Virus record (IMG/VR): IMGVR_UViG_3300036832_000582
Coordinates: 1 to 45,591 of that record
From: a virus
DNA: 45,591 nucleotides
Direction: 5' to 3' (one strand)
Position 1 is the stretch's first letter. Every line of letters starts with the position of its first letter. Below, one piece after another: positions 1 through 40,293 of this stretch. The translations under genes and the position numbers were made by a program. The notes under the pieces are model-generated. The model saw only the letters and a program-made list of their open reading frames with translations. It did no database searches and was not told the origin of the DNA.

Positions 1-961
1 TGGTGCGTGGAAGACCGGCGGCCAGATCACGAAGATCGACCCGGCGGTCGAGAAGAGCGTCGGCAAGGATCTCGCGGCCAGCATGCCCAGCGCGCCCGAG
101 GTGGAGCTGCCCAACCCGACCGGCGATCCCGAGAAGCTGATGGCGCTCGCGCACTCCAAGGGCCAGGCCCACTTCCAGGCGCTGCTCGATCTCGGCCAGG
201 GGATCGCGGATGCGCTGGGGGCCCAGACCCACGACGTGTCAGAGGGCAAGAGCTTCGACCAGGTGACCAGGGACATCGCCGCCAACATGGATAAGCCGCA
301 CGTGATCATCGCGCCGGTCAAGGACCACAAGCGCGCGCTGGACAAGGTCGCGTCGCTCGGCCGCGAGGGCGATCTGAGCAACCTTCACGACGTGTTGCGC
401 GCGACCGCGACCGTCCCGACGGCGCAGGATCTGCCGCACGCGATCGCGGAGATCACGCGCCAGGTGGAGGCGCGCGGCTGGAAGGTCGAGCGCACCACCA
501 AGCGGATGGTCGACAAGAACGGCTCCACGCGGCTGGCCAGCGGCTACGGCGACACGCGGCTGGTGCTGCGCGCGCCCCCGGAGGCGGGCGGGATGATGGC
601 CGAGCTGCAGATCAACACCAACCCGATGTGGCACACCAAGGAGGCCGGGCCCGGCCACAAGCTGTTTGAGCTGGAGCGCCAGATCACCGGTCGCCAGATG
701 ACCGAGAAGCGCGCGGCAACACCTGACGAGCAGTCGCTCGTGGGCGAGCTTCACAAGGCCGCCAAGCCCCTGTATGACCGTGCGTGGGGGGCGTCGCTGA
801 ACGGCGGCGTCACCGGGGACCCGGCGACCGCGCTGGGAACCAAGGAGGAGCGCGCGGCGGCCGAGGACCAGCTCAAGAAGCTGGCCGCCAAGACGGCGGG
901 GCTGATGGGCGGCCCGCCGACGCCGACGACGCAGCGCGGCCGCTTGCCCAGGGCGGCGTGA
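1..961 (+). CDS. Partial head-region protein with C-terminal RelA/SpoT-like domain
   Basis: The reading frame is open from base 2, so the true start lies left of the window; the first internal ATG at 83 is probably not the start. About 319 codons are visible. The middle and C-terminal part fits the RelA/SpoT nucleotidyltransferase fold: a basic PVKDHKRALDK segment, then DVLRATATV (the D..G/A.R position), then GYGDTRLVL, then AELQINTNPM and GPGHKLFELE, matching the family GYR-D-(I/L)-x-(L/V), ELQI and HK-(L/Y)-E motifs in order. Family members transfer pyrophosphate to nucleotides or to tRNA 3' ends. The stop overlaps the next ATG by one base (TGATG). The place just before head genes suggests the C-terminus of a minor head (MuF-type) protein, but that part is out of view. 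Domain call good; activity and fusion partner are inferred. Confidence 0.7.
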   Translation, partial: GAWKTGGQITKIDPAVEKSVGKDLAASMPSAPEVELPNPTGDPEKLMALAHSKGQAHFQALLDLGQGIADALGAQTHDVSEGKSFDQVTRDIAANMDKPHVIIAPVKDHKRALDKVASLGREGDLSNLHDVLRATATVPTAQDLPHAIAEITRQVEARGWKVERTTKRMVDKNGSTRLASGYGDTRLVLRAPPEAGGMMAELQINTNPMWHTKEAGPGHKLFELERQITGRQMTEKRAATPDEQSLVGELHKAAKPLYDRAWGASLNGGVTGDPATALGTKEERAAAEDQLKKLAAKTAGLMGGPPTPTTQRGRLPRAA

Positions 962-1680
962 TGGCGCGCGATCCGGTCACACCGGCCGATCCCGGCAGCA
1001 CGCAGAACACCGAGGTCGACCCGTCGCAGTCGACTCCCAACCGCTGGGGGTCGGGCGGCGACGACAGCTCGGAGTACGACGGCGGCGACTACCAGTTCTG
1101 GCTGCACGAGGGCACCACGCCGTTTCGCACGCTCGGCCCGGCGCAGGCCGACGTGTTCTCCCGGGACGACAACGGCTGGATGCGCCAGTCGGCGATCGAC
1201 CGCGCCAAGCTGTGGGACTCAAGCCCGGGCGAGATCGCGGGCAGGATCGGCGGGCGGCACCGGCTGACCGAGCCCGTCAAGGGCACCGCGCCGCTCGATC
1301 CCGGCCCCGACGAGGACTTCGCGCCGGTCGAGTCCCCCGACTACATCGCCGAGGCCGACTCCGAAGCCGACCTGCCTCAGCCGCCGCCGTCTGAGCAGGA
1401 CGAGGAGGCATCCGACCTTCCGCCGGGGGGCATGAACGAGCAGCAGATCCGCGACGCCGGTCTGCGCGTCGACGTGCCCTTCGAGAGCCCGCTGCCGGTG
1501 GGCCTGAAGTACAAGAACACGGGGCAGCAGGAGTGGACCCCGCCGCCGGGGTTCCGCCAGGGGCTGCCCCCGATCGACGAGGATCTCGCGACGAGCCTGG
1601 GCGTGCCGCGAGATCTCGGTAATCAGGAAGGGGCCGAGGGTGGCAGTACTAGCGGAGATACCGGGGAGCCTGGCTCCTGA
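961..1680 (+). CDS. Hypothetical acidic, proline-rich phage protein
   Basis: A 239-aa protein whose ATG overlaps the stop of the gene before it (TGATG), indicating translational coupling. It is hydrophilic and rich in Asp, Glu, Pro and Ser, with a low-complexity acidic middle (residues about 115-155) and a more ordered N-terminal part containing YQFWLHEGTTPFRTLG and FSRDDNGWMRQ. The C-terminal segment has VGLKYKNTGQQEWTPPPGF. I do not recognise the family. Its position between the RelA/SpoT-like gene and a small gene suggests a head-associated role, but nothing in the sequence proves it. It overlaps the next gene by 41 bases. Confidence 0.65.
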   Translation: MARDPVTPADPGSTQNTEVDPSQSTPNRWGSGGDDSSEYDGGDYQFWLHEGTTPFRTLGPAQADVFSRDDNGWMRQSAIDRAKLWDSSPGEIAGRIGGRHRLTEPVKGTAPLDPGPDEDFAPVESPDYIAEADSEADLPQPPPSEQDEEASDLPPGGMNEQQIRDAGLRVDVPFESPLPVGLKYKNTGQQEWTPPPGFRQGLPPIDEDLATSLGVPRDLGNQEGAEGGSTSGDTGEPGS

Positions 1681-9158: not shown

Positions 9159-9164
9159 GTGGCT

Positions 9165-10901
9165 GTGTCGGTCACCGCGCCACCGCAACGGCCACAGCAG
9201 CCGCGCCAGCAGCAGCCACCCCCGGCGGGCGGCGGCACCTGGCAGTCGCAGCTTCACCCTCGCGGGCGCGGCGGCAAGTGGATCGTCTCCCACGGTGCCG
9301 GGTACGGGGCCGCCGGGCCCGACCAGACGACCAAGCAGCTCCAGCAGCGCCTCCAGCAGCTCGGCTTCCACGTGCCCGCCGACGGCAAGTTCGGGCCCGA
9401 CACCCAGGACGCGGTCAAGGCGTTCCAGGCGCGCTACGGGCTGGACACGAGCGGCGGTGTGGACGCTGCGACGATGGAGGTGCTGCAGAACCCTCCCACG
9501 GAGACGCTCGCTCAGGTCCAGGCGGGGAACCGGGCCACGCGCAGGGCGGCGTCTGCGGCGGCCAGGAAGACCGCCACGGCCACGGCCAAGGCCAAGGCGG
9601 CCCGGCGTACGACCCGGGTTCGCGCGAGCGCAGGCGGGCGCACAGGGGGTCGTGGGGGGGTCCCCGCCGGGACGAACACGACCGTGATCGGCCCGGGCCA
9701 TCTCGGCAATGGCGAGCTGCGCCAGGGAGCGGGCATGACCGGCGTCAAGAACGAGGCGGTCGCCAACCTCCAGACGGCGCTCAACCAGACCGGGGCCAAA
9801 CTCGCGAAGGACGGGCGCTTTGGCCCGCGAACGGAGGCAGCCGTGAGACAGCTACAGCAGGCGCACGGGCTGGCCGCCGACGGCATCGTCGGGCCCGAGA
9901 CCAAGGGCCTGCTGATCGGCCTGCAGGCGAGCACGAGCACGGCCAAGAAGGCCAAGAGCACGGCCAAGAAGAGCGTCAAGAAGCCACTGCCCGGCGAGGT
10001 CGCGACGCTGCGCACCAAGTCGCCGCACGCGCGTCACAGCAGCCGCACCGCGGGCAGCCGGATGCGGATCAAGCCGCCCGCCAAGGGCATCGCCACGCTG
10101 AAGTACTCCGCCGAGGTGCCCACCAAGCAGCCCGACCTGGAGGAGGCGACGATCGCGTTCGGCTACGGCGGCGAGCCGTCGCGCTCGATCAAGGACTTCC
10201 GCGAGCAGGAGCCCGCCTACGACCTGCCGGTATGGCTCCCCGAGCAGATCCGCGCCGACGTCAGGGACCTGACCATCCAGGACGGCCGCCCGCCCTACCA
10301 GCCGCCGCCGCCGGGCAACACGACGATCGACGACGGGCGCATCGTCGAGCTGCAGGCGGCCCTGACCGAGGCGGTCACCGCCCGCCAGGCGGCCAAGGAC
10401 GGCCGCGAGTTCGCTCGCGCTCGCGCTCGCGAGCAGATGCTGCGCACGCGCCTGCAGGAGGCGTGGTCAGACGCCGCTCGCGCCGCTTCGCTGGCGGTGC
10501 GCCGGGCGCTCACGGCGCTCAAGCCCGGAGAGTCGACCGCGCTGGGGGCGTTTCACGTGAAACGGGAGAGCGGCGGCAAGTTCGAGCTGTACGGCCCGGG
10601 GCACAGGCGGGTGTCGTCGCACAGCACCGCCATTGCGGCCGCGGCGCACCTGGTGCGCGCCAAGCAGGGCCTGCCCAACGCGGCGCTGTCGACCCTGTAT
10701 CCGGTCGAGGAGGCGAGCGTCTACTCGGACAGGCTCAAGAGCGCCGAGACCAACAAGCCGTTTGACCTCGGCGGCGGGTTCACCGGACTCAAGCTCTCGA
10801 CCGGCCACTACGTGGCGGGCAACGGCACCGAGCACATCCACCACGAGGACCCCGAGCGCGTCGCGCGGGTCGTCGGCGCGCACCTCAGGAGGAAGACGTG
10901 A
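9165..10901 (+). CDS. Peptidoglycan-binding phage protein with two PG_binding_1 repeats
   Basis: 578 aa from GTG 9165 (an in-frame GTG lies at 9159). Two peptidoglycan-binding modules are clear: TTKQLQQRLQQLGFHVPADG with KFGPDTQDAVKAFQ (residues about 55-95) and VANLQTALNQTGAKLAKDGR with FGPRTEAAVRQLQ (about 195-235). An Ala/Lys-rich linker lies between and after them. Near the N-terminus LHPRGRGGKW resembles the HPR...GKW motif of phage head-associated proteins. The C-terminal part has a coiled segment (EFARARAREQMLRTRLQEA) and a domain with GAFHVKRESGGKFELYGPG. No catalytic endolysin domain is recognised, so it may be a virion-attached wall-binding protein rather than the lysin. Confidence 0.72.
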   Translation: MSVTAPPQRPQQPRQQQPPPAGGGTWQSQLHPRGRGGKWIVSHGAGYGAAGPDQTTKQLQQRLQQLGFHVPADGKFGPDTQDAVKAFQARYGLDTSGGVDAATMEVLQNPPTETLAQVQAGNRATRRAASAAARKTATATAKAKAARRTTRVRASAGGRTGGRGGVPAGTNTTVIGPGHLGNGELRQGAGMTGVKNEAVANLQTALNQTGAKLAKDGRFGPRTEAAVRQLQQAHGLAADGIVGPETKGLLIGLQASTSTAKKAKSTAKKSVKKPLPGEVATLRTKSPHARHSSRTAGSRMRIKPPAKGIATLKYSAEVPTKQPDLEEATIAFGYGGEPSRSIKDFREQEPAYDLPVWLPEQIRADVRDLTIQDGRPPYQPPPPGNTTIDDGRIVELQAALTEAVTARQAAKDGREFARARAREQMLRTRLQEAWSDAARAASLAVRRALTALKPGESTALGAFHVKRESGGKFELYGPGHRRVSSHSTAIAAAAHLVRAKQGLPNAALSTLYPVEEASVYSDRLKSAETNKPFDLGGGFTGLKLSTGHYVAGNGTEHIHHEDPERVARVVGAHLRRKT

Positions 10902-20764: not shown

Positions 20765-21145
20765 ATGGCGCTGCTGCTCACCGGTCCGTGGAAGATCAAG
20801 CGCGGAGCCACCTCGCCGCCCTACCACGTGACGCTGCGCCAGGCGGACAAGAACCCGGTGGATCTCAGCCAGGCCGATCACGTCAACTTTGTGATGCGCC
20901 TGCGCGGGGAGAACGACCCGACCGTCGATGCGCTGGCGGTCACGATCCAGGAGGGTGACGCCGAGACCGGCACCGACGTCGGCGTCTGCGAGTACGACTG
21001 GGTCCGGGGCGACACCGACGTCAGCGGGATCTACGACGTCGAGTTCGCGCTCTATGACGTCAACGGCGAGGTGTACGCCCGGGTCCCGAACGACAGCTAC
21101 CTTGAACTTCAAATCCTTGGGAACCTGTCGGCTCCACCGCCATGA
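20765..21145 (+). CDS. BppU-like N-terminal / tail-accessory protein
   Basis: 126 aa, probably from a leaderless mRNA. The sequence follows the pattern of the N-terminal domain of phage upper baseplate proteins: KIKRGATSPPYHVTLRQADK, NPVDLSQADHVNFVMRLRGE, then VCEYDWVRGDTDVSGIYDVE and a final YARVPNDSYLELQI. Such domains are Ig-like beta sandwiches that attach receptor-binding parts to the tail. Family call is by recalled pattern. The stop overlaps the homing endonuclease start. Confidence 0.62.
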   Translation: MALLLTGPWKIKRGATSPPYHVTLRQADKNPVDLSQADHVNFVMRLRGENDPTVDALAVTIQEGDAETGTDVGVCEYDWVRGDTDVSGIYDVEFALYDVNGEVYARVPNDSYLELQILGNLSAPPP

Positions 21146-21606
21146 CGAGCGAGGCCGAACTCGCCTACTTTGCGGGCTTCTTCGACGGCGAGGGTTGTGT
21201 TGGTATCAACCCTGTCTCAAAGGCTGGCGGGGTTAGCCGCTACTACTGCCTTTACGCCACCGCTCGGCAGATCGACACCACCCCGCTCCAGATGCTCAAG
21301 GAAGCTTTCGGTGGCTGTATTCAAGGACCCCACAATGCCTCCGCAACTAAGCGGGGCACCTATTCGTGGCGTGTGCAGGCGGCGCAGGCAGAGCAGTTCC
21401 TGGTAGCGGTCTTGCCGTACCTGGTAGTCAAGCGGGCCCAGGCCGAGCTTGCCTTGGAGTTCCGCCGAACCTTCCACCGGGGGGAGATCCTCCCGAAGGG
21501 CAGCACCCACGCAGGGAATCCTGCGCGGCGTCATGCAGTCATGGAACGGCGCGAGATGTGCTACCGGGAGATGAGAGCGCTCAACAGGCGCGGTCCCCGC
21601 CCGTAG
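21142..21606 (+). CDS. Free-standing LAGLIDADG homing endonuclease
   Basis: 154 aa, ATG overlapping the previous stop. The signature LAYFAGFFDGEGCVGI (residues 7-22) is a clear single LAGLIDADG motif, whose last acidic residue in FDGEG binds the catalytic metal. Downstream sequence fits the fold: RYYCLYATARQIDTTPLQML, FGGCIQ, and a C-terminal GRRHAVMERREMC-type helix. With one motif it should act as a homodimer. It cuts intron- or gene-free alleles and spreads by gap repair. The gene is lower in GC than its neighbours in its first 200 bases, suggesting recent transfer. No intron is visible around it. Confidence 0.85.
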   Translation: MTSEAELAYFAGFFDGEGCVGINPVSKAGGVSRYYCLYATARQIDTTPLQMLKEAFGGCIQGPHNASATKRGTYSWRVQAAQAEQFLVAVLPYLVVKRAQAELALEFRRTFHRGEILPKGSTHAGNPARRHAVMERREMCYREMRALNRRGPRP

Positions 21607-23526: not shown

Positions 23527-25005
23527 ATGAGTGCTGTCACAGACCCGCCGACCGAGGCGCTTGAGCTACGCGAGGCGATGTACGCGCTCTCGCGCGACGC
23601 CGTCCCGTTCCCGACCGAGCTGCAGGAGCAGCGCGTCCGGCGACTCGTCGACCGCGGCCTGAGCTTGGAAGAGGCGACCGAGACCGAGCAGCACGAGCGC
23701 AACAAGCTGCTGCCGCTGCACATCCTGCGCCCGTGCCTGGGCAAGGGCAAGGGCCGACACCTCTACGAGGCGAAGATGCTGGAGGAGAACGCCAGCAAGT
23801 TCGCGGGCTGGCGGCAGTTCATCGACCACCTCTCACCGGAGGCGCGGCGCGCGGCCAAGGGGCTGCCGCGCTCGATCCGCGACCTGGGCGGGCGGATCGT
23901 GGAGAGCTACTGGGACGGCAGCGTGCCGCCCGACCCCGACAAGGACTTTGGCCAGGGCGCGGTCGTCGGCTGGTCGCTGCCGACGCCGTTCATCCGCGAG
24001 CTGGCCGAGAACGATCCCGAGCTGGTCGAGGCCTCGATCTCGGCCAACGCCACGAGCGTGCAGCCGATCATGCGCGACGGCCGCCGGGCGTGGCTGGTCG
24101 AGGGCATCGAGGATCGCGGAAGCGTTGACTGGGTGACGGAGGCGGGCGCTGGCGGCCGCGTCGTCGCGCTGATGGAAGCTGCCTACGAGGAGGACGGGAT
24201 GGGACTGCTGGAGACGATGACCGACGAGGAGTTCATCGCCTACGTCGAGGAGATCCGCCCGCACCTACTCACCGAGCAGTCTGACGGCGACGCCGAGGAC
24301 GCGGCAGACCAGGGCGATGACGAGCTTGAGGAGATGGTCGCGCGGATGATGAAGCGCAACCCCAAGCTCAACCGGGCCCAGGCCGAGGCGCTGGCCAAGA
24401 AGGCGCTGGCCAAATCAACGGCGGAAGCCGCAATCACAGAGGAGACGGATATGGGTGCGATCACCCCCGAGGCGCTCCAGGAAGCTCTCCAGAGTGAGGA
24501 CTTCCGCGGCGTGCTCGATGACGTTGTCGAGCAGCGCGTCAAGACGCTGGTCGAGGCGGCGGTGGCAGGCGAGCGAGAGCTGATCCGCGCCGAGGCGCGC
24601 GCCGACGCCGACCGCCAGCTTGAGCTGCGCGACATGCGCGACGCGGCTCACCGGCAGATCTCAGAAGCCAAGCTTCCGACGGTGTTCGCGAATCGCGCCA
24701 AGGCGCAGTTCGAGATCACCAACGACGGCCCGGCGTCGGCGCTGGATGTCGTCGACGACGTCGACGATGACGGCAACGTCACCAAGCAGGCGGCCGCCAA
24801 GCTCCAGGAGGCGGTGGACGCCGCCGTCCAGGATCAGCGCGAGCTGCTCGCCGCGGCCAACCCGACGGCCGTTCGCGGCCAGGGCCCTGGCGCTCCCGCC
24901 AAGCGCGGCGACGGGGAGGAGGACCCGAAGAAGGGCGAGGGCACGCTCTACGGGTCCCTGCTCCAGGAAGCAGGGGTCGATCCCGCAACGGCGTGGGACG
25001 ACTAG
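23527..25005 (+). CDS. Prohead (capsid maturation) protease fused to scaffold
   Basis: 492 aa. The N-terminal 235 residues look like a phage prohead serine protease: VVGWSLPTPFIREL, SISANATSVQPIMRDGRR and IEDRGSVDWVTEAGAGGRV, the S-V-D-x-V-T-x-(A/P)-G-A-G-G signature whose Ser is the likely nucleophile. Then an acidic linker and a long charged helical region (residues about 300-420, GELIRAEARADADRQLEL type) typical of scaffolding proteins, ending in a Gly/Pro-rich tail. It lies directly before the decoration and major capsid genes, as expected. An internal start at 24451 could give scaffold alone. Catalytic assignment by motif memory. Confidence 0.72.
   Translation: MSAVTDPPTEALELREAMYALSRDAVPFPTELQEQRVRRLVDRGLSLEEATETEQHERNKLLPLHILRPCLGKGKGRHLYEAKMLEENASKFAGWRQFIDHLSPEARRAAKGLPRSIRDLGGRIVESYWDGSVPPDPDKDFGQGAVVGWSLPTPFIRELAENDPELVEASISANATSVQPIMRDGRRAWLVEGIEDRGSVDWVTEAGAGGRVVALMEAAYEEDGMGLLETMTDEEFIAYVEEIRPHLLTEQSDGDAEDAADQGDDELEEMVARMMKRNPKLNRAQAEALAKKALAKSTAEAAITEETDMGAITPEALQEALQSEDFRGVLDDVVEQRVKTLVEAAVAGERELIRAEARADADRQLELRDMRDAAHRQISEAKLPTVFANRAKAQFEITNDGPASALDVVDDVDDDGNVTKQAAAKLQEAVDAAVQDQRELLAAANPTAVRGQGPGAPAKRGDGEEDPKKGEGTLYGSLLQEAGVDPATAWDD
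24451..25005 (+). CDS. Nested in-frame scaffold protein
   Basis: In-frame ATG 24451 is preceded at six bases by GAGGAG, a good internal ribosome site placed exactly at the boundary between the protease part and the helical scaffold part. Translation here would give a 184-aa scaffold (MGAITPEALQEALQSEDFRG start). The lambda C/Nu3 pair uses the same design. It is inferred from the site and domain boundary only. Confidence 0.5.
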   Translation: MGAITPEALQEALQSEDFRGVLDDVVEQRVKTLVEAAVAGERELIRAEARADADRQLELRDMRDAAHRQISEAKLPTVFANRAKAQFEITNDGPASALDVVDDVDDDGNVTKQAAAKLQEAVDAAVQDQRELLAAANPTAVRGQGPGAPAKRGDGEEDPKKGEGTLYGSLLQEAGVDPATAWDD

Positions 25006-25445: not shown

Positions 25446-25522
25446 TCGGCCCTTCGGGGCATCATCATGGGCGCGTTGCGCCTTGGCGGGGAGCGGCGAA
25501 AGTCAAACCAAGGAGCAACGTG

Positions 25523-26578
25523 ATGCACGGCAATCCATACGGGGCTTACGGGCGACCGATTCGGCTGCTGGAGGCCTACAAGGAATGGCGCGACGAGCGC
25601 CAACTGGAGGAGGCCGACTCCAAGGCCGACTTCCCGTCGTTCCTGTTCGGCCCGGTGCGCCAGTCGATGTGGTCCGGGTACTCGCGGGCCCAAGCGCAGT
25701 ATCAAAGGTACACGCGCCAGGAGAACGCGCCGGACTTCCGCGACCGGCGACTGCGTGGCCTCAACGGGCTGCTCGGGATCGGCTACGTGGGAGACCACGG
25801 GCACTACCCCGGCATGGTCCGCACCGAGCGCCCGGCGGCTTCGCTGTCGGTCGACACGTACGGTGGCGTCTACCAGATCACCCGCCAGGCGATCATCAAC
25901 GACGACTCCAACGAGCTGCTGAACCGCAACCCGGCCGACATGGGCTACGCGGCCGGTGTGTTCATCCTGCAGACCGTGATCGCGATGATCCAGACCCCGG
26001 GTCTCGCGCCGGACGGCAACGCGTTCTACAGCGTCCCCCGCGGCAACCAGGTGGTCGTGCCGCTGTCAGAGGACGCGCTGGCTGACGCGGTGGCCTACAT
26101 GGAGTCCCAGCTCGACGACGACGGGCGTCAGATCGTCGTCACGCCGCAGCTCCTGGTGGTCAAGAACGCGCGCCTGCAGATGATCGCCCAGCGGATCCTC
26201 AACTCGACCCAGACCGGCGTCAACATCCAGTACACGGGCGCGGCCGGAGTCGGATCCAACGTGTTCGACAAGGGCACGATCAACCCGCTGGCCGGGATTC
26301 TTCCCGCCGACGGCGTGATCCGCGATCCCTGGTTCTCAGACGCCAACGACTGGTATCTGTTCGCCGACCCGGGCGACGTCCCCGCGTTCGCAGTGGGCTT
26401 CCTCAACGGGCAGTCAGAGCCGCAGGTAATGCTCAAGGACCCGATGGTCCGGATGGCGCTGGGCGCGGGCACCGACCCCTACCAGTACGAGCTGGACTCG
26501 GTGGACTTCAAGGTCCGCTCGGACTTCGGCACTGCACCGATCGACCCTCGCGGTGCGTACCGTTCAATCGTTCCGTAG
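25523..26578 (+). CDS. Major capsid protein (HK97 fold, Mu gpT-like)
   Basis: 351 aa. ATG 25523 is preferred to GTG 25520 because AAGGAG is about seven bases upstream. Sequence shows the expected features: N-terminal helical arm (RLLEAYKEWRDERQLEEADS), RTERPAASLSVDTYGGVYQI followed by TRQAIINDDSNELLNRNPAD (typical of gpT-like subunits), the central ALADAVAYMESQLDDDGR, ITVVTPQLLVV-type strand, and a C-terminal VDFKVRSDFGTAPIDPRG. Forms the icosahedral shell after cleavage or direct assembly. Located right after decoration gene; flanked by hairpins on both sides, consistent with high independent expression. Confidence 0.85.
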   Translation: MHGNPYGAYGRPIRLLEAYKEWRDERQLEEADSKADFPSFLFGPVRQSMWSGYSRAQAQYQRYTRQENAPDFRDRRLRGLNGLLGIGYVGDHGHYPGMVRTERPAASLSVDTYGGVYQITRQAIINDDSNELLNRNPADMGYAAGVFILQTVIAMIQTPGLAPDGNAFYSVPRGNQVVVPLSEDALADAVAYMESQLDDDGRQIVVTPQLLVVKNARLQMIAQRILNSTQTGVNIQYTGAAGVGSNVFDKGTINPLAGILPADGVIRDPWFSDANDWYLFADPGDVPAFAVGFLNGQSEPQVMLKDPMVRMALGAGTDPYQYELDSVDFKVRSDFGTAPIDPRGAYRSIVP

Positions 26579-39242: not shown

Positions 39243-39589
39243 TGCTCGGGCCCGAACCACTCGTGCTCGTCGGACGCCAGGCGTTCTTTGACGCCCAGCA
39301 GGGCTTTTCGGGCGTGGTAGTCGCGATGGGCTACTTCACCGTGAGCTGGTACGGGTCCTCGGTGTCTGACGAGCGCGGCAGCTTCGGCGTCGTGGATCCC
39401 GCGATGGGGCTGGCCGACTCGGTCGGCGACGTCGTGCAGGCGGGCTACAACGGGCGCACAGTGTCGGTCTACGTGATCGGCTCCCAGCCCGGTCTCGGCA
39501 CCGACCTCGGGCTCTCGCGGCGCTCCTACATGGCGCTTGAGCTGCTGGCGATCGAGCCGCTGACCGCGACCGTCGGGACGGTGACGTGA
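39242..39589 (+). CDS. Baseplate small protein, possible RlpA-like double-psi barrel
   Basis: 115 aa, GTG overlapping the previous stop (TAGTG). [20 protein letters not shown] then [20 protein letters not shown] and [11 protein letters not shown] follow the order W-Y-G ... A-x-x-x-L-x-x-G-x-x-V-x-V ... G-R-x-V-x-V-x-V of double-psi beta-barrels such as RlpA, though the catalytic Asp is not evident. In contractile systems a small protein here can plug or stabilise the hub. Family idea is inference; conservation of place is good. Confidence 0.55.
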
Positions 39590-40293
39590 GCGGCCGCCTG
39601 GCACTGCGCGACGCGATCGGCGAGCACGGCAAGCGCCTGGTCAACCGTCACAAGGGCTCGCACTGGGCGACGGTGTCTGACACCAGCCCGCTGACGCTCG
39701 ACGTGCACGACTTCGATCATCCGCTGGTCTACGACGACGACTTTGAGCTGTCGCAGTCGCTGACCAGCTACCACCAGTCGGTGGGCCTGGACATCGACGA
39801 CATGCTGCTGCTGCAGGAGATCGGCAGCGCCTGGGTGGCGGTCGACGTCGTCTCTGACGGGCCTGCCCCGTCGCTCGCCGGTAAGCCGGGTCCGGCAGGC
39901 CTGACCGGGCCCCAGGGTGCGACCGGGCCGCAGGGCACAACTGGCCTGACCGGGCCGCCCGGATCCCAGGGCCCGACCGGGGCGCAGGGGCCGACCGGAC
40001 CGACCGGCGCACAGGGCCCAACAGGGCCCCAGGGCGCAACCGGCCCGCAGGGACCACCCGGCCCGCCGGGCTACTACAGCAACAACGCCACGCACGGGGC
40101 CGGGACGACGATCACGATCACGCAGGCAACGCACGGACTGCGCGCCAGCCGAGGGATCCAGGTCCAGGTCCAGGACAACGCGACCGGCAGCGTCGAGCTT
40201 CCCGACATTGCCGTCGCCGCGAACGGGGACGTGACGGTCACCTATCTGGCGTCGCTCACGGCCAACACCAAGCTCGTGACACTGGTCGGCTGA
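39586..40293 (+). CDS. Baseplate-associated collagen-like protein
   Basis: 235 aa, GTG overlapping the previous stop. The N-terminal 95 residues are a folded domain ([60 protein letters not shown]), similar in plan to small baseplate spike proteins. Residues about 98-160 are a continuous Gly-X-Y collagen stretch ([20 protein letters not shown] and on), followed by a beta domain of 70 residues ([20 protein letters not shown]). Trimeric rod carrying a head. Similar collagen repeats are found in the minus-strand gene at 15342. Confidence 0.68.

What the first reader, a model, noticed from the sequence alone, without database searches (positions are those of the whole stretch)
1..961. RelA/SpoT-like domain fused to or next to phage head genes
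The ordered motifs (KDHKRALDK, DVLRA, GYGDTRLVL, AELQINTNPM, GPGHKLFE) fit a RelA/SpoT transferase. Small alarmone synthetases act as toxins (toxSAS) that modify nucleotides or tRNA CCA ends. Polymorphic toxin domains joined to MuF head proteins are known, and such a protein could be injected with the genome. Here the domain is at the C-terminus of a longer frame that starts outside the window.
Basis: partly seen in the sequence, partly recalled or inferred. Interest (0 to 1): 0.72.

Follow-up and report, generated by a model that had tools for sequence, protein, structure and literature searches.

The report
Phage zeta toxin fused to RelA domain
The window starts inside a large phage protein that in its relatives joins two bacterial toxin types (a zeta kinase and a RelA/SpoT-like enzyme), and most of those relatives also carry a probable "undo" enzyme fused to a tRNA-repair enzyme, which suggests, but does not prove, a toxin-and-repair kit carried by the virus particle.

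Summary
Window 2-961 (+, open at its 5' end) is the last 319 aa of what in relatives is a 928-952-aa protein, and holds a RelA/SpoT-type pyrophosphokinase domain. The catalytic Asp (aa 130) and Glu (aa 201) are invariant in 17 of 17 aligned sequences. The AlphaFold2 model (pLDDT 89) matches Rel/SAS structures first.

No MuF domain was found in full-length relatives. They carry a Zeta toxin (E about 1e-22) before the RelA/SpoT domain. In the window the head cluster starts 22.6 kb downstream; in relative G001 the portal is far away too. A distant cousin does show a MuF-RelA/SpoT fusion.

The nearest solved relative by sequence is Tas1, a (p)ppApp synthetase. Four of five long relatives also encode a protein joining a CCA-adding tRNA nucleotidyltransferase to an HD domain whose best solved match, by sequence and fold, is the (p)ppApp hydrolase 7smg. 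The fifth lacks both domains.

Best reading: a virion-type polyvalent effector that pyrophosphorylates an adenosine 3'-OH (ATP/ADP, or tRNA CCA), with a hydrolase plus CCA-repair counterpart in the same phage group. Acceptor, packaging and reversal are inferred. New variant of a known kind.

The parts
2..961 (+). C-terminal 319 aa of a protein that in relatives is a zeta-toxin/RelA-SpoT polyvalent protein; the 5' end lies outside the window
   Evidence: full-length relatives L003 4180-6966, L004 4168-6957, L018 4123-6936, L084 3021-5879
74..793 (+). RelA/SpoT-type pyrophosphokinase domain with its N-terminal helices (the stretch modelled)
   Evidence: AF2 pLDDT 89.1, pTM 0.86; Foldseek ranks 1-31 in PDB are Rel, SAS or FaRel entries; VIA-align: SaEAS 8vx3 Z 14.2 and Tas1 6ox6 Z 13.9, tied
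320..346 (+). Syn1-like motif KDHKRALDK (K107, R111, K115 invariant)
   Evidence: 17 of 17 sequences
389..391 (+). catalytic Asp 130 (Syn2, HDVLRAT; R-x-T is the form reported for Apk2)
   Evidence: 17 of 17; aligns with Tas1 'KDLARNT'; Apk2 form
542..553 (+). Syn3 / acceptor-loop motif GYGD (Y182, D184 invariant)
   Evidence: Tas1 has GYSG at this place
602..610 (+). catalytic Glu 201 and Gln 203 (Syn4, AELQINTNPM)
   Evidence: 17 of 17; Tas1 'GEIQVN'
961..1680 (+). acidic 239-aa protein of unknown function (net charge -28); its ATG overlaps the stop of the RelA-domain gene (TGATG); candidate cognate partner or immunity protein
   Evidence: overlap seen in 6 of 6 clade-I loci; homologue found by BLAST in 4 of the other 5 and read by eye in L018; no Pfam match
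25520..26578 (+). major capsid protein (context: the head cluster, 24.6 kb downstream)
   Evidence: Phage_capsid_4 E 5.3e-37; phrog_133 / phrog_4523
23527..25005 (+). scaffold-like head protein (context)
   Evidence: phrog_172 head scaffolding E 2.6e-6
9159..10901 (+). peptidoglycan-binding protein carrying the same LHPRGRGGKW motif as the zeta-RelA relative L004 (context)
   Evidence: PG_binding_1 E 1.2e-33; motif list

Best explanation
The gene encodes a two-toxin polyvalent phage protein: an N-terminal region (bearing an HPRGRGGKW motif in two of the four full-length relatives), a zeta-type kinase, and a C-terminal RelA/SpoT-type pyrophosphokinase. The RelA/SpoT domain most likely moves pyrophosphate from ATP onto the 3'-OH of an adenosine, either free ADP/ATP (giving (p)ppApp and draining ATP, as Tas1 and the Apk2 toxins do) or the A76 end of tRNA (as FaRel2 and CapRel do). 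It probably rides in the virion with the phage's other polyvalent proteins and acts early in the new host. In the same phage group a second polyvalent protein, encoded after the portal in G001, joins a CCA-adding tRNA nucleotidyltransferase to a (p)ppApp-hydrolase-like HD domain and can be expected to undo 3'-adenosine pyrophosphorylation, made by its own toxin or by host defence toxSAS. Shown here: fold, conserved catalytic residues, domain fusions (in relatives), co-occurrence. Inferred: the zeta part of the window's own gene, acceptor, catalysis, packaging, timing, reversal.
For: Catalytic D and E plus K/R/K, Y and GH are invariant in 17 of 17 sequences. Fold. A profile of the 17 against PDB sequences puts Tas1, a (p)ppApp synthetase, first at E 1.4e-11; the next is 2.9e-5. 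Zeta toxin E 9.9e-23, 1.1e-21 and 1.7e-22 in L003, L004 and L084, with a GGGYA[SA]GKG P-loop in L003, L004 and L018. The second protein is present in 4 of 5 long clade-I contigs; in G001: PolyA_pol 2.6e-16, tRNA nucleotidyltransferase phrog_2244 1.9e-51, HD phrog_990 1.1e-27. Its CCA motifs and HD metal motifs are intact in 4 of 4. A profile of these four HD domains puts 7smg, (p)ppApp hydrolase, first (3.3e-16; next 2.7e-9). The AF2 model of the G001 HD (pLDDT 94.6) also has 7smg first (Foldseek 2e-7 against 3.8e-5 for MESH1; Z 21.0 against 18.8). 7smg and all four share GQxD or DQxD, where Rel and MESH1 have R. A phrog_990 HD occurs in 15 of 21 RelA-domain records.
Against: No activity, packaging or toxicity was tested. 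By structure, SaEAS, Tas1, RelP and RelQ tie (Z 14.2-13.4), so acceptor choice rests on sequence only. The Syn3 motif here (GYGD, GYRD) is neither the GxN reported for Apk2 nor the SxH of guanosine enzymes. Pfam cut-offs are missed by the RelA_SpoT domain of the window and L003, and the model does not hit L004 or L084 at all at E 1; the clade-I HD is below the HD_4 cut-off and the CCA part below NCBIfam's equivalog cut-offs. One clade-I phage (G021) keeps the zeta-RelA gene but lacks both CCA and HD, so the undo module is not obligatory. Aph1-like HD domains occur in 34 other viral loci, none with this RelA domain detected in the flank held (up to 6 kb), so the HD may serve another purpose. 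The motif between the CCA and HD modules may mark separate products, which weakens the fusion argument.
Confidence: 0.5

Rival explanations
1. Counter-defence kit. The CCA-HD protein is there to repair tRNA 3' ends damaged by host toxSAS or nuclease defences (HD removes the 3'-pyrophosphate, the CCA enzyme rebuilds the end), and the zeta-RelA protein is an unrelated host-takeover effector.
For: CCA and HD are present together (4 of 5) or absent together (1 of 5, G021) in clade-I contigs while the RelA gene stays. A phage SAH, PaSpo of SSU5, is reported to remove the tRNA modification made by FaRel2 (PMC11559606, passage). Jumbo-phage authors list an alarmone HD enzyme among counter-nucleotide defences and the CCA-adding enzyme under RNA repair (PMC7824862, passages). 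Aph1-like HDs are found in viral loci with no such RelA gene detected nearby.
Against: A phrog_990 HD sits beside the RelA gene in many clade-II phages, which looks like a dedicated pair.
Confidence: 0.25
2. An ordinary toxin-immunity pair: the RelA/SpoT protein is a MuF-family-like toxin of temperate phages, with an HD hydrolase and a small neighbouring protein as immunity, kept for the lysogen's benefit.
For: Clade II shows the order portal, RelA, ~70-aa ORF, HD (e.g. L019, L024, L026, L027), like apk2-iapK-aph1 (PMC12226406). In the six clade-II contigs over 80 kb, HD and integrase go together: both present in G005, G007, G013, G022, both absent in G011, G020. L098 is a MuF-RelA fusion.
Against: The window's clade shows no tyrosine integrase in 5 of 5 and no serine resolvase in 5 of 5 long contigs, no adjacent HD gene and no MuF fusion. 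Contigs are linear and may be incomplete.
Confidence: 0.15
3. A guanosine alarmone synthetase: the domain makes (p)ppGpp and triggers a stringent-like arrest of the host.
For: The fold is tied with RelP and RelQ. The clade-II HD keeps the R residue of (p)ppGpp hydrolases, and the mixed HD profile matches MESH1 best.
Against: The clade-I HD and the RelA domain both match (p)ppApp enzymes best by sequence; Syn2 is R-x-T as in Apk2, not the RSH form.
Confidence: 0.1

Closest known systems
Tas1 / Apk1 (P. aeruginosa T6SS effector, (p)ppApp synthetase, PDB 6ox6)
   Same: Best sequence-profile match (E 1.4e-11); 25% identity over 166 structurally aligned residues (Z 13.9, rmsd 2.4); same AP-x-K...RA..K, D..R.T, GY, E-x-Q and GHk.yE motifs
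   Different: Tas1/Apk1 is a PAAR-linked T6SS effector (PMC12226406); this one is a phage protein fused, in relatives, to a zeta domain; Syn3 differs (GYGD against GYSG)
Apk2 (MuF + (p)ppApp synthetase, with IapK and Aph1 immunity), prophage polymorphic toxins
   Same: RelA-type domain at the C-terminus of a large phage protein; Aph1-like hydrolase in 4 of 5 long clade-I contigs; a cousin (L098) has the MuF fusion
   Different: No MuF found in the full-length relatives, zeta instead; hydrolase not adjacent but fused to a CCA-adding enzyme; no integrase found
Polyvalent proteins (Iyer et al. 2017)
   Same: Multi-domain effectors of tailed phages; RelA/SpoT and zeta domains are both reported there, each fused to MuF (PMC5512222, passages)
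   Different: Zeta plus RelA/SpoT in one protein, and CCA-adding plus Aph1-like HD in one protein, were not met in the passages read or in the searches made
(p)ppApp hydrolase 7smg (B. caccae; the Aph1 kind)
   Same: Best PDB match of the clade-I HD domain by sequence and fold; shares GQxD
   Different: 7smg is a small separate protein (149 residues); here a module of 1027-1150-aa frames with a CCA-adding enzyme and, in G001 and G002, DUF7178
toxSAS that modify tRNA (FaRel2, CapRel)
   Same: Same fold (CapRel Z 11.6); adenosine 3'-OH acceptor
   Different: Weaker match than Tas1 by fold (Z 11.6 against 13.9); not among the sequence-profile hits

Membership tests
RelA/SpoT (SYNTH) superfamily | SYNTH fold | tested here: met
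   AF2 pLDDT 89.1; Foldseek PDB ranks 1-31 all Rel, SAS or FaRel entries; VIA-align Z up to 14.2 against 8.0 for the first row outside the family
RelA/SpoT (SYNTH) superfamily | catalytic Asp (Syn2) and Glu (Syn4) | tested here: met
   invariant in 17 of 17, aligned to the matching residues of Tas1; also seen in L084, L093 and L098, found later
RelA/SpoT (SYNTH) superfamily | sequence homology to characterised members | tested here: met
   profile E 1.4e-11 to Tas1, 2.9e-5 and weaker to SAS/Rel. Pfam cut-off missed by the window sequence alone (13 against 27 bits), not hit in L004 and L084 at E 1, passed by relative P0002 (30.6 bits)
Apk (adenosine 3'-pyrophosphokinase) | makes (p)ppApp only | not testable with these tools
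   needs an enzyme assay
Apk (adenosine 3'-pyrophosphokinase) | Syn signatures reported for Apk2 (RYT / GxN / YH, PMC12226406) | tested here: inconclusive
   Syn2 RAT fits R-x-T; Syn3 GYGD and Syn4 IN do not match GxN / YH
Apk2 / MuF polymorphic toxins | N-terminal MuF domain | tested here: not met
   no Phage_Mu_F at E 1 in full-length L003, L004 or L084 nor at E 10 in 10 records; the window's own N-terminus is not held
Apk2 / MuF polymorphic toxins | encoded by a temperate phage | tested here: inconclusive
   no PF00589 or PF00239 in 5 of 5 long clade-I contigs, but the contigs are linear and may be incomplete
Apk2 / MuF polymorphic toxins | aph1-type hydrolase gene next to the toxin | tested here: not met
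   in clade I the HD is in another protein: G001 109.9-113.0 kb against 22.2-25.0 kb; not found in G021
tRNA-modifying toxSAS | pyrophosphorylates the tRNA CCA end | not testable with these tools
   needs an assay
Zeta toxin | Zeta_toxin domain with P-loop | tested here: met
   in relatives only: 81.1, 77.6 and 80.3 bits against a cut-off of 22.3, P-loop in 3 of 3 checked; in the window itself the region is not held
Phage polyvalent proteins | several unrelated effector domains in one phage protein | tested here: met
   zeta plus RelA/SpoT in L003, L004, L084 (alignment); CCA plus HD plus DUF7178 in the second protein
Phage polyvalent proteins | packaged in the virion and injected | not testable with these tools
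   only shared motifs and gene context
Aph1-type (p)ppApp hydrolase (HD of the second protein) | HD fold and metal-binding motifs | tested here: met
   7smg first by profile, Foldseek and VIA-align; H43, H62, D63, E66, D67, D125, N129 invariant in 10 of 10
Aph1-type (p)ppApp hydrolase (HD of the second protein) | hydrolyses (p)ppApp | not testable with these tools
   needs an assay

The most novel reading that the evidence does not exclude
Lytic-looking phages carry in the virion both a zeta plus adenosine-3'-pyrophosphokinase weapon and a matching repair protein in which a 3'-pyrophosphate hydrolase is fused to a CCA-adding enzyme. The real substrate of both is the tRNA 3' end: the first blocks host translation (or answers host defence), the second restores tRNAs for the phage and defeats host toxSAS immunity.
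Probability: 0.18. Interest if true: 0.85.

Novelty: new variant of a known kind. Interest (0 to 1): 0.55.

Why it matters
RelA/SpoT toxins in phage heads are known from MuF proteins of prophages. Here the same chemistry appears in phages without a detectable integrase, joined to a second toxin, and the matching hydrolase is joined to a CCA-adding enzyme. If the hydrolase-CCA protein repairs tRNA 3' ends, it is a ready-made, testable candidate for an injected phage answer to CapRel/FaRel2-type immunity, and it would say what the RelA domain acts on.

Tried and rejected
MuF fusion for this protein: rejected for lack of any Pfam MuF match in full-length relatives. P0004 of G001 has a MuF-like Cys/His stretch by eye only; the Pfam model does not confirm it.

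Standard toxin plus adjacent hydrolase for clade I: rejected, the HD is not adjacent. Clade II alone was considered as an Apk2-like operon; its ~70-aa ORF is only positionally like IapK.

A tight RelA-HD bond: weakened by G021, G011, G020 and the 25-kb fragments G018 and G019, which have RelA and no phrog_990; the short contigs G017 and G024 have none either. Further weakened by 34 Aph1-like loci without RelA nearby. Limits of that control: the RelA profile used may miss distant Apk2 domains, several flanks are cut by contig ends, some loci are near-duplicates, and the loci were picked with a pattern that contains GQ[TV]D, so that signature in them is circular.

Rows left out of the RelA alignment A3: L021, L022, L029 and L031, near-identical to L020, L028 and L030; L084, L093, L095 and L098 were found later.

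Codon-position counts between clade-I copies gave no useful sign of selection because third positions are nearly all G/C. A genome scan with A3 used one pattern, matched 17 stretches and confirmed no relative in bacterial genomes. PADLOC gave nothing for 6 proteins. A DNA scan for the HPR motif matched 10 stretches and was not followed. In the window PHROGs gave one weak match of unknown function to the RelA part (phrog_37685, 7.7e-5). In one search no family was excluded by absence.

Literature: the whole text of no paper was read. Seen: PMC12226406 parts 1-3 of 4; passages of PMC5512222, PMC3482391, PMC12691689, PMC11782079, PMC11559606, PMC11699363, PMC7824862, PMC5576092; the rest only as search listings. 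PMC10083569 (Aph1) is not held. Searches for zeta toxin with RelA or alarmone synthetase in phages: none; one paper (PMC3266247, zeta toxin of B. subtilis, listing only). tRNA nucleotidyltransferase with RelA/HD/pyrophosphohydrolase or alarmone hydrolase: none. Looser searches gave 64 and 213 papers, of which 10 and 8 were listed. So no report of either fusion was met, in an open-licence library only. RelSeq residue numbering and the role of the R/D position in base recognition are recalled, not from a call.

Full report
WHAT IS THERE. The window is a 45,591-base fragment of a virus record, 67-70% G+C, with a contractile-tail phage layout: capsid, sheath, tape measure and baseplate genes. Its first frame, 2-961 (+), is open at the 5' end and gives 319 aa. 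Relatives show the missing part: 928 aa in L003, 929 in L004, 937 in L018, 952 in L084; L017 is cut like the window. Window and contig G001 share their gene order from this gene to window 32.7 kb, which is where the compared 60 kb of G001 ended, so the window corresponds to G001 from about 22 kb onward, in a phage of at least 125 kb.

DOMAINS. The three full-length relatives scanned (L003, L004, L084) match Pfam Zeta_toxin in the middle at 77.6-81.1 bits (cut-off 22.3). The C-terminal part matches RelA_SpoT weakly in the window and L003 (13 and 15.5 bits, cut-off 27), not at E 1 in L004 and L084, but over the cut-off in the Bordetella phage relative (30.6 bits). An alignment of 17 sequences keeps K107, R111, K115, D130, R133, Y182, D184, E201, Q203, G218 and H219 (window numbering) in all 17; L084, L093 and L098, found later, also have the Asp and Glu. 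The profile finds Tas1 first among solved proteins (E 1.4e-11), then small alarmone synthetases and RelA. The AF2 model (pLDDT 89.1) finds only Rel, SAS or FaRel entries in ranks 1-31. VIA-align gives SaEAS 14.2, Tas1 13.9, RelP 13.8, RelQ 13.7 and CapRel 11.6; the first four are tied. In the viral structure library four of the five best matches are proteins of 981-1129 residues, three of them named DdrB-like, ART-PolyVal-like and RelA/SpoT; the fifth is named Tas1. So RelA/SpoT domains in polyvalent phage proteins are a known theme.

TWO CLADES. Clade I (window, G001-G004, G021) has zeta before RelA in the four cases where the full length is held (three by Pfam, L018 by its P-loop). Clade II (PHB04-like) has RelA behind a different N-terminus; it follows the portal directly in 8 of the 12 loci where my script located the gene (16 loci given), three loci start inside it and one has an ORF between. 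L098, a short contig, is a MuF-RelA fusion (Phage_Mu_F E 1.3e-4, RelA_SpoT 0.0035, both below cut-off).

THE HYDROLASE. A search for HD_4 in the relatives led, through matches below the cut-off, to a second large protein in clade I. In G001 it lies at 109,935-113,018, after the portal (102,681) and a 1046-aa protein with GNAT homology. It is built as motif, CCA-adding tRNA nucleotidyltransferase, motif, HD, DUF7178 (NCBIfam's best is the actinobacterial CCA enzyme, below its equivalog cut-off). The CCA catalytic motifs GGxxRD..DxD, RRDFT[IV]N and EDPLRMLR and the HD motifs are intact in 4 of 4. The protein is in G001-G004 and in no other of the 21 records. In the fifth clade-I contig, G021, the orthologue is 515 aa, with the N-terminus and DUF7178 but neither CCA nor HD; neither turned up elsewhere in that contig with the whole protein as query or with phrog_990. 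The HD belongs to the RelA/SpoT hydrolase family. The four clade-I HDs match 7smg, a (p)ppApp hydrolase, far better than others by profile (3.3e-16 against 2.7e-9), and the G001 HD model does so by fold. They share with 7smg an Asp where Rel and MESH1 carry Arg (alignments). Clade-II HDs (6 aligned) keep the Arg, and the mixed profile is closest to MESH1.

CO-OCCURRENCE. A phrog_990 HD is found in 15 of 21 RelA records: 4 of 4 clade-I contigs in that set, 11 of 16 clade-II contigs (some near-duplicates), not in the 45-kb window fragment. Four further records gave 2 of 4: G022, where it lies just behind RelA, and G023, where it is some 8 kb away on the other strand; G021 and the 5-kb G024 have none. 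CCA (phrog_2244) is in 4 of 21, all clade I. Among the six clade-II contigs above 80 kb, HD and tyrosine integrase are both present in four and both absent in two. This is suggestive, too few to be a test. Clade I has neither PF00589 nor PF00239 in 5 of 5. Against a strict pair: 34 other viral loci with Aph1-like HDs show no such RelA in the flank held.

MECHANISM. Two independent domain matches, synthetase to Tas1 and hydrolase to 7smg, point to adenosine 3'-pyrophosphate chemistry. The acceptor may be ATP/ADP or the A76 of tRNA. The CCA-adding partner favours tRNA; the Tas1 match favours free nucleotides; a phage SAH is reported to strip the FaRel2 mark from tRNA (PMC11559606, passage). The motif H-P-R-x-R-x-G-[KR]-[WF] lies in the zeta-RelA protein of L004 and L084 (not in L003 and L018), before the CCA module and between the CCA and HD modules in 4 of 4, twice by pattern and a third time by eye in the 1046-aa protein of G001, and in the peptidoglycan-binding protein of the window. 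It looks like a module border or targeting motif of virion proteins. That is inference.

PARTNER GENE. The next gene (window 961-1680) starts inside the stop codon of the RelA-domain gene in 6 of 6 clade-I loci and codes for an acidic protein of about 240 aa (net -28 to -30 in the five measured). It is the best candidate for a cognate binding partner.

VERDICT. Real, well conserved, catalytically intact by sequence. New variant of known kinds (Apk-type toxins, polyvalent proteins). What deserves the interest is the pair of fusions: zeta with a RelA domain, and CCA-adding enzyme with a (p)ppApp-hydrolase-like HD.

Noticed in passing
G001 109935-113018 (L035 4935-8018 +); G002 L036 10708-14043 -; also G003 and G004: CCA-adding enzyme and SpoT/Aph1-like HD in one phage protein (with DUF7178 in G001 and G002), after the portal in G001, with an HPR-type motif before each of the first two modules.
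   Followed up: yes
L106 256-1803 - (G021): Orthologue without CCA and HD; in their place a stretch with two HVT motifs that looks like a 2H phosphoesterase (by eye only).
   Followed up: partly
L106 1793-3199 - (G021): GNAT (below cut-off) plus ADP-ribosyltransferase (ADPrib_exo_Tox E 4.5e-17) in the neighbouring large protein.
   Followed up: no
window 9159-10901; L004, 69 aa into the zeta-RelA protein; L035, L036: Recurring motif LHP-R-[GD]-R-x-G-[KR]-[WF] in several large proteins of one phage, placed at module borders: possible processing or packaging signal.
   Followed up: partly
clade-II contigs G005, G007, G011, G013, G020, G022: HD hydrolase gene tracks tyrosine integrase in six long contigs (4 both, 2 neither), as expected if HD is lysogen immunity.
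   Followed up: partly
L098 1183-3003: MuF domain fused to the same RelA/SpoT subfamily on a 5-kb contig.
   Followed up: partly
window 21142-21606: Frame with YFAGFFDGEGCVGI, LAGLIDADG homing-endonuclease-like by eye.
   Followed up: no
window 39586-40293: Collagen-like [10 protein letters not shown] repeats in a short late gene between tail genes.
   Followed up: no
L013 15872-15946 - and 16534-16617 - (G002): Two tRNA genes (Glu, Thr) predicted; none in the seven G001 pieces scanned nor in the other two G002 pieces.
   Followed up: no
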